Positions 37,909-39,302 of a stretch of DNA of 64,000 bases are shown one piece after another; position 1 is the stretch's first letter; every line of letters starts with the position of its first letter. Origin of the DNA: Gilvibacter sp. SZ-19 (lineage in GTDB: Bacteria > Bacteroidota > Bacteroidia > Flavobacteriales > Flavobacteriaceae); assembly GCF_002163875.1 (NCBI RefSeq), contig NZ_CP019333.1, positions 2,720,864 to 2,784,863 on the forward strand, written 5' to 3'. Made by a program: the position numbers and the translations under genes. The notes under the pieces were generated by a model. The model had not been told where the DNA came from. It did no database searches and saw only the letters and a program-made list of their open reading frames with translations.

Positions 37909-38601
37909 TGAATTAGGGCGCCAATAGTCATTGGCTTGTTCATGTTACGGATCGAACACAAGTGAGAAATCGAAGTAATTCTTAGGCCAAAGATTCGAGC
38001 TGTTAAGTAGGCGCGAAGTCGGTATGAAGAATACGGGGGTTTCATATTCGATTCGGGGTTACGGTTTAGTTGAAACGTTATTAGCTGTAATTCAGCTGCT
38101 GACAAAAATGTGTATTAAAATCCATTTGACCAAGAAAAAACATGATAATTTGCACTTTAACTGCAAAAAAGTGCATTTCATCGATGTTTTTAAGGCTATA
38201 GAATTAACAATTGTTAGTTGAATTTTGTAGGAAGAGGAAGGGTAGTGTATAGTATACCTTAATTTAAGTAAGTCTTTGGTTTTGGGCGCTCGCTGCCTAA
38301 GGTGTCACTCCAGCTTTTATTTGGTGATCTTTGGGTAATAGTAGTTCGGGCGCCACCCTCACTGCATTCGGGTCGGGCTATCGCTACTCGCTATCACCTT
38401 CGCTAAACCTACGGTGATCGAAGACACTTGCTGAGTTCTACAGAACCCCTTTAGGATCGACTGGGCTTTAGATTTTCCTGAACAAAATTTAGTTTTGACC
38501 ATGGGGTAGTCTAAACCCCACCCAAATTTTAATTAGTTATTTAAATACAATGCATCAAAAACAAAAGCTCAGGATTTATAAATATATGCTGTTAATTGGT
38601 A
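37909..38601. other. Gene-free region with hairpins upstream of the M14 gene
   Basis: No credible ORF. Up to about 38220 the DNA is AT-rich and should hold the M14 gene promoter; I found only a degenerate -7 box (AATCTTTG, 37995-37988 minus). From 38281 to 38470 the base composition rises in GC and shows words repeated farther right (GGGCTATCGCTACTCGC at 38375-38391 and 38699-38715). Small palindromes occur at 38436-38446 (GTTCT..AGAAC) and 38503-38520 (TGGGGT..ACCCCA). Confidence 0.5.
38165..38184. repeat. 20-nt motif shared with 28277-28296
   Basis: Identical to 28277-28296. Here it is the right arm of an 8-bp inverted repeat TGCACTTT...AAAGTGCA (about 38153-38176). It lies about 260 bp upstream of the M14 peptidase start codon. 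Confidence 0.65.
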
Positions 38602-38634
38602 TTGCCAGCTGATGAAATGTTCTCGGTATGTTTG
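38602..38634 (+). promoter_or_regulatory. Candidate promoter in front of the hairpin-repeat array
   Basis: TTG at 38602-38604, 22-nt spacer, TATGTTTG at 38627-38634 (exact TAnnTTTG). The spacer is slightly long. Initiation would be near 38640, at the first base of repeat B. Confidence 0.45.
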
Positions 38635-38637
38635 TAT

Positions 38638-38660
38638 GAGGTACCCGCGTAAGCGGAAAG
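38638..38660 (+). repeat. Repeat B, copy 1
   Basis: 23 bases identical to 38873-38895. Contains CCGC GTAA GCGG, a 4-bp stem with a GNRA-type loop on the plus strand, followed by GAAAG. Confidence 0.8.
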
Positions 38661-38772
38661 CATTTTTATTTGTTTTTTGGGCGCCTGCCTTCGGCACCGG
38701 GCTATCGCTACTCGCTTTTGCTTCGCAAAGAGCTCAAACATGCGCTCTATCCCTGTCGCGGGGGAATTGTTT

Positions 38773-38814
38773 GAGACTTAGCTCCTTTCATTCGCTGAGT
38801 CTTAAGAGGGAAGC
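38773..38814 (+). repeat. Repeat A, copy 1
   Basis: GAGACTTAGC, variable loop, CGCTGAGTCTTAAG and AGGGAAGC. The stem is 9 bp with one G-T pair. Followed by two triloop hairpins at 38834-38848 and 38850-38868. Confidence 0.8.
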
Positions 38815-38849
38815 CTGAACATTACCGAACGAAGTTTTCAAAGAAAACC

Positions 38850-38868
38850 AAATATCCAGTGGATATTT
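38850..38868 (+). repeat. Triloop hairpin 1
   Basis: AAATATCC (38850-38857), loop AGT, GGATATTT (38861-38868); perfect 8-bp stem. Comparable hairpins follow the other A copies with different stem sequence. Confidence 0.8.
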
Positions 38869-38872
38869 GAGA

Positions 38873-38895
38873 GAGGTACCCGCGTAAGCGGAAAG
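38873..38895 (+). repeat. Repeat B, copy 2
   Basis: Exact second copy of the 23-base element at 38638-38660, placed between triloop hairpin 1 and the second A copy. Confidence 0.8.
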
Positions 38896-38907
38896 AACGA
38901 TTACAAT

Positions 38908-38950
38908 GAGACTTAGCTCGCTATCACTCGCTGAGTCTTAAGAGGGAAGC
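38908..38950 (+). repeat. Repeat A, copy 2
   Basis: Same stem and AAGAGGGAAGC tail as copy 1, with loop TCGCTATCACTC. Confidence 0.8.
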
Positions 38951-38978
38951 TGTATCAAGCATAGGACCGAGCGTTGAG

Positions 38979-38999
38979 AAAATGTCCTGTGGACATTTT
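38979..38999 (+). repeat. Triloop hairpin 2
   Basis: AAAATGTCC (38979-38987), loop TGT, GGACATTTT (38991-38999); perfect 9-bp stem. The flanks CGTT and AGCG can extend it after a small internal loop. Confidence 0.8.
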
Positions 39000-39035
39000 T
39001 AGCGAAGGGGCCAGGCTGCCGCGTTGGTATGAATA

Positions 39036-39079
39036 AAGACTTAGCTCGCCTTTGGCTCGCTGAGTCTTAAGAGGGAAGC
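39036..39079 (+). repeat. Repeat A, copy 3
   Basis: Same stem and tail with loop TCGCCTTTGGCTC. No B element precedes it; the segment 39005-39030 stands in its place. Confidence 0.8.
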
Positions 39080-39099
39080 AGGAACAAGCATACAAACCC

Positions 39100-39127
39100 A
39101 AAAGCCCGTTGGGCTTTTACTGTCTTT
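39100..39127 (+). terminator. Triloop hairpin 3, terminator-like
   Basis: AAAAGCCC (39100-39107), loop GTT, GGGCTTTT (39111-39118), then ACTG and TCTTTTTT. It could end a plus-strand transcript of the array. Confidence 0.5.
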
Positions 39128-39172
39128 TTTCACGTCCATTCGCTTTGAAAGCAAGCTTTCAGCTCAGAACAT

Positions 39173-39205
39173 AAAAAAACCCAGATACCTTGCGGTATTT
39201 GGGTT
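39173..39205 (-). terminator. Rho-independent terminator of the tRNA-Met gene
   Basis: Minus strand: imperfect 12-13-bp stem AAACCCAAATACC (39193-39205 with 39176-39188), GCAA loop, then a T-run. It begins 9 bases past the tRNA 3' end. Confidence 0.85.
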
Positions 39206-39213
39206 TGCTTTTG

Positions 39214-39287
39214 TAGCGAGAGGGAGACTTGAACTCCCGACCTCCGGGTTATGAATCCGACGCTCTAACCAGCTGAGCTACCTCGCC
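39214..39287 (-). tRNA. tRNA-Met (anticodon CAT)
   Basis: 74 nt. Acceptor GGCGAGG pairs with TCTCGCT (G-T at the ends), discriminator A. The D arm has AGCTCAGCTGGTTAGAGC, the anticodon loop TTCATAA carries CAT, and the T arm is GGGAG TTCAAGT CTCCC. CCA is not encoded, as usual in Bacteroidota. The D-arm form and absence of initiator features point to elongator Met; a lysidine-modified tRNA-Ile (CAT) cannot be fully excluded. Confidence 0.93.
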
Positions 39288-39302
39288 ATTTTTTACAGCG
39301 AG

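What the first reader, a model, noticed from the sequence alone, without database searches (positions are those of the whole stretch)
38602..39127. Candidate new structured RNA: tandem array of three hairpin units with promoter and terminator signals
A 490-nt gene-free stretch contains element A three times (period about 130 nt), element B twice, and after each A a triloop hairpin with a different stem sequence but kept pairing (AAATATCC/GGATATTT, AAAATGTCC/GGACATTTT, AAAAGCCC/GGGCTTTT), the pattern expected of an RNA structure. Element B folds into CCGC-GTAA-GCGG, a GNRA loop only on the plus strand. TATGTTTG (38627) sits right before the first B, and the last hairpin is followed by a T-run. 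It is not a CRISPR and not a known tRNA or rRNA. A function is unknown; a DNA repeat family is the alternative.
Basis: partly seen in the sequence, partly recalled or inferred. Interest (0 to 1): 0.68.

Follow-up and report, generated by a model that had tools for sequence, protein, structure and literature searches.

The report
Mosaic of structured repeats beside tRNA-Met
The 'new RNA' is a patchwork of hairpin-forming DNA repeats beside a tRNA gene in a marine Gilvibacter; one of its pieces is a strongly conserved 80-base fold that occurs about 25 times per genome and also sits in front of a family of membrane-protein genes in other flavobacteria, so it looks like a mobile repeat rather than one new RNA gene.

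Summary
The repeats are real: A three times, B twice, with stable hairpins. The reading as one three-unit RNA gene is not supported. The stretch is a mosaic in the 3' flank of tRNA-Met. A (hairpin plus linker) is a local tandem repeat found only at this locus, in three of four Gilvibacter genomes. B is the 3' end of an 80-nt unit (outer stem, two inner hairpins, then CCGC-loop-GCGG) present 15-26 times in each of the four genomes. Its fold is very well supported (94% of cells paired; 22 of 24 pairs change on both sides). Copies are gained, lost and tandemly duplicated between species, avoid divergent regions (26 convergent, 4 divergent), and lie 3' of tRNAs and genes in antisense orientation. 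The three 'different stems with kept pairing' belong to three different elements. The promoter motif is at chance frequency and not conserved; no Rfam family matches. Best explanation: REP/BIME-like, non-autonomous structured DNA repeats, mobiliser unknown. Unexpectedly, B homologues form the 5' leader of DUF6090 genes in ten other flavobacterial genera, some in integron-like cassettes; there an RNA role is plausible.

The parts
38584..38661 (+). B-type unit 1, decayed: only the 3' part (GAGGTACCCGCGTAAGCGGAAAG) is well kept
   Evidence: model R1, 29.9 bits; also present in G. sediminis as GTGGTACCGGTGTAAGCGGAAAG
38678..38765 (+). C unit: GGGCGCC frame ending in CGCGGGGG, with exchangeable inner hairpins
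   Evidence: genomic copies; family listed; inner part differs in G. sediminis
38772..38814 (+). A unit, copy 1 (hairpin GACTTAGC..GCTGAGTC plus linker TTAAGAGGGAAGC)
   Evidence: model R2 match
38817..38896 (+). B unit 2, complete: outer stem TACC/GGTA, H1 GTTTTC..GAAAAC, H2 CAAATATCC-AGT-GGATATTTG, H3 CCGC-GTAA-GCGG
   Evidence: model R1, 97 bits; own fold -21.2 kcal/mol, z -5.2; absent from the orthologous loci
38907..38962 (+). A unit, copy 2, with linker AGGGAAGC..CAAGCATA
38963..39014 (+). D unit (GGACCGAGCG - AAAATGTCC-TGT-GGACATTTT - TAGCGAAGGGGCC), a shorter relative of B
   Evidence: genomic copies at G000:C1:892264, 766709, 661280; kept in G. sediminis
39036..39091 (+). A unit, copy 3
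39100..39131 (+). terminator-like hairpin AAAAGCCC-GTT-GGGCTTTT with downstream T-run
   Evidence: a hairpin with a T-run at the same place in G. sediminis and DT_42
39213..39287 (-). tRNA-Met (CAT); the array lies in its 3' flank, behind its own terminator-like hairpin (39177-39206)

Best explanation
The stretch is a mosaic of hairpin-forming repeated DNA in the 3' flank of tRNA-Met: dispersed, non-autonomous repeat units (B, C, D) together with a locus-specific tandem repeat (A). It grew by insertion of dispersed units and by local tandem duplication, as REP/BIME-type clusters do. Shown here: dispersal, structure, covariation, presence/absence between species, preference for gene and tRNA 3' flanks. 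Inferred: that folded single-stranded DNA is the form that is copied or inserted, that an enzyme not yet identified moves it, and that folding of read-through RNA at gene ends is a by-product or a reason for retention.
For: B model R1 finds 26, 26, 15 and 22 matches in four Gilvibacter genomes; fold supported on 83 distinct sequences, covariation score 0.374 against 0.163 shuffled. Presence/absence and tandem gain at orthologous loci: window locus (no array in the fourth genome), L124 against L107, L140 against L126, tRNA-Ser locus. 26 convergent against 4 divergent settings, 3'-side neighbour on the opposite strand 53 to 15, nine of nine distinct tRNA loci with B 3' of the tRNA and antisense. 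Pieces of the array scattered over the genome.
Against: A is confined to this locus in three genomes, with two pairs changed on both sides and a kept U-G pair, and a terminator-like hairpin follows it, which also fits a transcribed element. No mobilising enzyme is identified. The G-T over A-C excess (52 to 20) fits folded RNA as well as single-stranded DNA. In other genera the same fold is a 5' leader. Exact ends and target duplications of B were not determined.
Confidence: 0.7

Rival explanations
1. Locus-specific small RNA or 3'-UTR element: the A hairpin, linker and terminator-like hairpin are transcribed from the + strand, and B, C and D are later insertions.
For: A occurs only here, in 2-3 tandem copies in three genomes; stem kept with changes on both sides at two pairs; linker AGGGAAGC..AACAAGCATA kept; terminator-like hairpin with T-run at the same place in three genomes; in DT_42 the A units directly follow what looks like a + strand ORF (my reading of the sequence).
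Against: No conserved promoter; array missing in the fourth genome; few sequences, so the covariation is thin; A2 and A3 are separated by a D unit here.
Confidence: 0.2
2. REPs moved by the genome's RAYT (TnpA-REP) of Bacteroidetes subclass 2.6.
For: One Y1_Tnp protein of 186 aa with WQ and YIHNNP motifs; subclass 2.6 genes are flanked by atypical structures that have genomic copies (PMC6006769); a C-like half unit lies beside this gene.
Against: The inverted hairpins flanking the gene (CACCAGACGGAGTCTGG) are unrelated to A, B or D; no convincing B match in 32 RAYT-locus sequences (best E 0.1); G. sediminis shows no RAYT match but has 26 B copies.
Confidence: 0.1
3. B units are recombination sites or passengers of an integron-like cassette system that acts on folded single-stranded DNA.
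For: A B-like fold lies inside 271-nt repeats that separate unrelated genes in G. sediminis, and cassette starts are complementary to their own site as expected of integron cassettes; B lies 3' of genes in antisense orientation, as the active strand of attC does (general knowledge).
Against: No integron integrase above cut-off in the genus (best 115 bits against 265); paired RYYYAAC/GTTRRRY ends were not seen at dispersed B copies by eye.
Confidence: 0.1
4. B is a transcribed terminator or 3'-end stabiliser for the tRNA or gene that reads into it.
For: Placement 3' of tRNAs and genes in a fixed orientation; read from the tRNA side, H2 is followed by GTTTTC, flagged as terminator-like.
Against: The T-run is only four long; the tRNA here has its own terminator-like hairpin; copies are gained and lost.
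Confidence: 0.15

Closest known systems
REP elements and BIMEs (repetitive extragenic palindromes, with or without a REPtron/RAYT)
   Same: Short, non-coding, hairpin-forming repeats in many copies between genes, single or in mosaic clusters, avoiding divergent regions
   Different: 80-nt unit with a closed three-way fold plus a third hairpin instead of a simple 20-40 nt palindrome; no GT[AG]G tag noted; not flanking the genome's RAYT
Atypical REP structures of Bacteroidetes TnpA-REP subclass 2.6 / RAYT group 5 (PMC6006769)
   Same: Same phylum, atypical structures with genomic copies; one similar RAYT in this genome
   Different: RAYT flanks here carry other hairpins; B occurs without any RAYT in G. 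sediminis
Integron attC sites and cassette arrays
   Same: Folded repeats 3' of genes, antisense strand folded; B-like fold inside attC-like repeats of G. sediminis
   Different: Dispersed B copies lack recognised core sites; no integron integrase above cut-off
Rfam bacterial motifs, including Flavo-1
   Same: Structured element in flavobacteria
   Different: No match at gathering score, and none by E-value up to 5 over 38100-39300 except tRNA and weak chance families

Membership tests
REP/BIME | many copies, mostly extragenic | tested here: met
   15-26 matches of R1 per genome; about 12 of 85 copies overlap a called ORF of 90 aa or more, several of these in repeat-derived ORFs
REP/BIME | palindromic, forms stem-loops | tested here: met
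REP/BIME | short simple palindrome of about 20-40 nt | tested here: not met
   80-nt unit with several hairpins and an outer stem
REP/BIME | copies in clusters or mosaics of several repeat types | tested here: met
   window array
REPtron (RAYT-linked REP) | repeat flanks a RAYT gene | tested here: not met
   no B at the RAYT of this genome or at sampled RAYT loci of the family; a C-like half unit is present
REPtron (RAYT-linked REP) | cleavage of the repeat by TnpA-REP | not testable with these tools
   needs the purified protein
attC / integron | integron integrase in the genome | tested here: not met
   TIGR02249 best 115 bits against cut-off 265; model positions 178-238 not covered in the best hits
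attC / integron | complementary core sites at the ends of the repeat | tested here: inconclusive
   met for several cassettes of the G. sediminis array; not seen by eye at dispersed B copies
structured RNA gene | covariation in homologues | tested here: met
   for B; thin for A; does not separate RNA from DNA
structured RNA gene | conserved promoter or transcript | tested here: not met
   promoter at chance level and not conserved; transcription itself not testable here
known Rfam family | match at gathering score | tested here: not met

The most novel reading that the evidence does not exclude
B is one structural family with two lives. In ten other flavobacterial genera it is a conserved 5' leader of DUF6090 genes, overlapping a leader ORF of 36-41 codons that stops on the DUF6090 start codon, hence a cis-acting RNA carried partly in integron-like cassettes. 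In Gilvibacter the same fold has spread as a mobile, strand-oriented repeat at tRNA and gene 3' ends, perhaps by recombination on folded single-stranded DNA.
Probability: 0.2. Interest if true: 0.75.

Novelty: new variant of a known kind. Interest (0 to 1): 0.48.

Why it matters
The B unit is a structured repeat family with very strong covariation that has no Rfam match, and I found no paper describing it in the library held here. It shows that covariation among dispersed copies does not by itself prove an RNA gene. Because the same fold is a 5' leader in some genera and a dispersed 3'-flank repeat in another, roles at the DNA and RNA level can be tested against each other.

Tried and rejected
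Rfam at gathering and relaxed thresholds: only tRNA reaches a gathering score. RAYT as the direct explanation: B does not flank RAYT genes. Classical integron integrase in the genus: none above cut-off. Promoter signals: chance level. Literature: nothing on DUF6090 and nothing on Gilvibacter repeats in the titles and abstracts returned; one search on flavobacterial integron cassettes gave only class 1 integron and resistome papers. A first alignment of A used wrong bounds and was redone. RNAalifold alone on the DUF6090 leaders recovers only the second hairpin.

Full report
Observation. Searching the window's own genome (3.1 Mb, one contig) with 38602-39127 gave twenty places. Pieces of B, C and D occur elsewhere; the A core occurs exactly three times, all here, plus two places with three mismatches. 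A pattern from B found named relatives, Gilvibacter sediminis NBRC 101626 and a Gilvibacter metagenome genome, DT_42, so the window is taken to be Gilvibacter (Flavobacteriaceae). The handles G100 and G102 are read as these two because contig lengths agree (1,445,480 and 5,760 bases).

What the pieces are. B is the 3' end of an 80-nt unit. Twelve copies from this genome align end to end and fold into an outer four-pair stem that closes two hairpins, followed by a third hairpin. A covariance model (R1) finds 26, 26, 15 and 22 matches in four Gilvibacter genomes. Over 83 distinct sequences 94.1% of pair cells are paired and 22 of 24 pairs show two-sided changes; the covariation score is 0.374 against 0.163 in shuffles and at most 0.083 when partners are slid. 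That alignment was fitted to the model, so the values lean upwards, and the rows include relatives at orthologous places; but in the unfitted MAFFT alignment of twelve copies the outer stem already shows TACC/GGTA, TATC/GATA, TGCT/AGCA and TATT/AATA. A was modelled separately (R2). It occurs only at this locus in three genomes, apart from one weak match, and not in the fourth. C has a GGGCGCC...GCGCGGGG frame with exchangeable inner hairpins. D is a shorter relative of B's second hairpin.

The terminator-like hairpin is real, and a similar one stands at the same place in the relatives. The promoter signal is not supported: TANNTTTG is at chance frequency, and G. sediminis has CATGTTTT.

Comparison between species. 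The locus lies between an M14-peptidase gene and tRNA-Met followed by a START-like gene. The orthologous locus has no array in the fourth genome. DT_42 has two A units and no B there; G. sediminis has three A-type hairpins, a C with other inner hairpins, a D and the B remnant, but not the 136-nt stretch with the complete B. Elsewhere a B copy is present in the window's genome and absent in G. sediminis, with a flanking stretch repeated. B lies between two other repeats in DT_42 but not in G. sediminis. Downstream of tRNA-Ser the window's genome has several copies in tandem where G. sediminis has one. This is how mosaic repeat clusters behave.

Context. With simple ORF calling on the fetched loci, B copies are rarely in divergent regions (4 against 26 convergent), and the gene on B's 3' side is on the opposite strand in 53 of 68 cases. 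At nine distinct tRNA loci B lies 3' of the tRNA in antisense orientation. Orthologous loci are counted more than once in 53:15 and 26:4, so the binomial values overstate significance; the nine tRNA loci were grouped by eye. G-T pairs outnumber A-C mismatches 52 to 20, which points to the B strand as the folded one, as RNA or as single-stranded DNA; the model-based alignment may favour G-T somewhat.

Mechanism. The best-supported explanation is a cluster of non-autonomous structured repeats in a gene-end region, moved and multiplied as DNA. The mover is unknown. The single RAYT-like gene is not flanked by B, and G. sediminis shows no RAYT match although it has 26 B copies. Two-sided changes within palindromes can arise by template switching between the arms (general knowledge of quasi-palindrome correction, not tested here), so covariation does not decide between RNA and DNA.

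An unexpected relative. Model R1 over 149 Flavobacteriaceae genomes finds matches in twelve other genera, one to four per genome, nearly all over the full model. Of 22 such places read, 19 in ten genera stand directly before a gene whose product begins like DUF6090 proteins; of twelve such proteins scanned (one of them the Gilvibacter cassette gene), eleven pass the Pfam cut-off and one scores just below it, and two places are judged by the start sequence alone. One Gilvibacter copy and one leader agree at 61 of 83 alignment columns, score 93.5 against at most 46 in 500 shuffles. Fourteen or more of nineteen leaders contain an ORF of 36-41 codons (MIKFFRLSKxNFxxQNQRSxRxLVEIAACGK...) that stops on or next to the DUF6090 start, as in ATGATTAA. 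The second hairpin of these leaders also shows two-sided changes. In G. sediminis an array of unrelated genes, all on one strand, is separated by 271-nt repeats that hold a B-like fold. Three of its cassettes show exact complementarity of 9-10 bases between the cassette start and their own site, as expected of integron cassettes, but no integron integrase reaches the cut-off in the genus. Some DUF6090 genes of other genera show the same GTTGTGCTT/AAGCACAAC frame (L166, L169, L171). An RNA role in those genera is plausible, and this is the most novel reading left open.

Verdict. Repeats confirmed; structure confirmed for B; a single structured RNA gene not supported. Most likely this is a REP/BIME-like mosaic with a new, unusually elaborate unit.

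Noticed in passing
L166-L187, e.g. L166:1486-1600 and L168:1481-1596 (other Flavobacteriaceae genera): B homologues form the 5' leader of DUF6090-type genes (19 of 22 places), overlapping a conserved leader ORF of 36-41 codons that ends on the DUF6090 start; a direct repeat of about 18-25 nt (CTAACCAATGATAAAATTCTTTAGA / CTAACCATGATTAAGTTC) flanks the element.
   Followed up: partly
L135:1700-10400 (G. sediminis, G100:C17): Integron-like gene cassette array: unrelated genes (sigma-70, Crp-like, DJ-1, DUF6090, RDD) on one strand, separated by 271-nt attC-like repeats that carry a B-like fold; cassette starts complementary to their own site, but no integron integrase above cut-off in the genus.
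   Followed up: partly
L027:2226-2786 (minus strand): The genome's only RAYT-like Y1_Tnp gene, with SHVH where NH[LIV]H is usual, flanked on both sides by inverted hairpins containing CACCAGACGGAGTCTGGCGCTAGCG, and a C-like half unit nearby.
   Followed up: partly
window 38280-38440: A second C-like repeat upstream of the finding, apparently nested with an A-like end (CTTGCTGAGTTCT); the matching stretch of G. sediminis reads GACTTAGCTTGCGATCACC...CTCGCTGAGTTC.
   Followed up: no
L101, L136, L091, L130 and others: Another dispersed hairpin repeat, GTCATCTCGATAC-hairpin-CACTCGATGACC, often next to B copies and sometimes with B inserted inside it.
   Followed up: no
G000:C1:2991881-2992675 (L189, L193): IntI-like tyrosine recombinase (115 bits to TIGR02249 or less, IntI-specific stretch not covered) with similar genes in G. 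sediminis and DT_42; a B copy lies about 1.6 kb away.
   Followed up: no
L084 (fourth Gilvibacter genome), minus-strand read 4020-1940: At the orthologous locus, in place of the array, genes that read like contractile-tail sheath and tube proteins (my reading; no family search was run).
   Followed up: no
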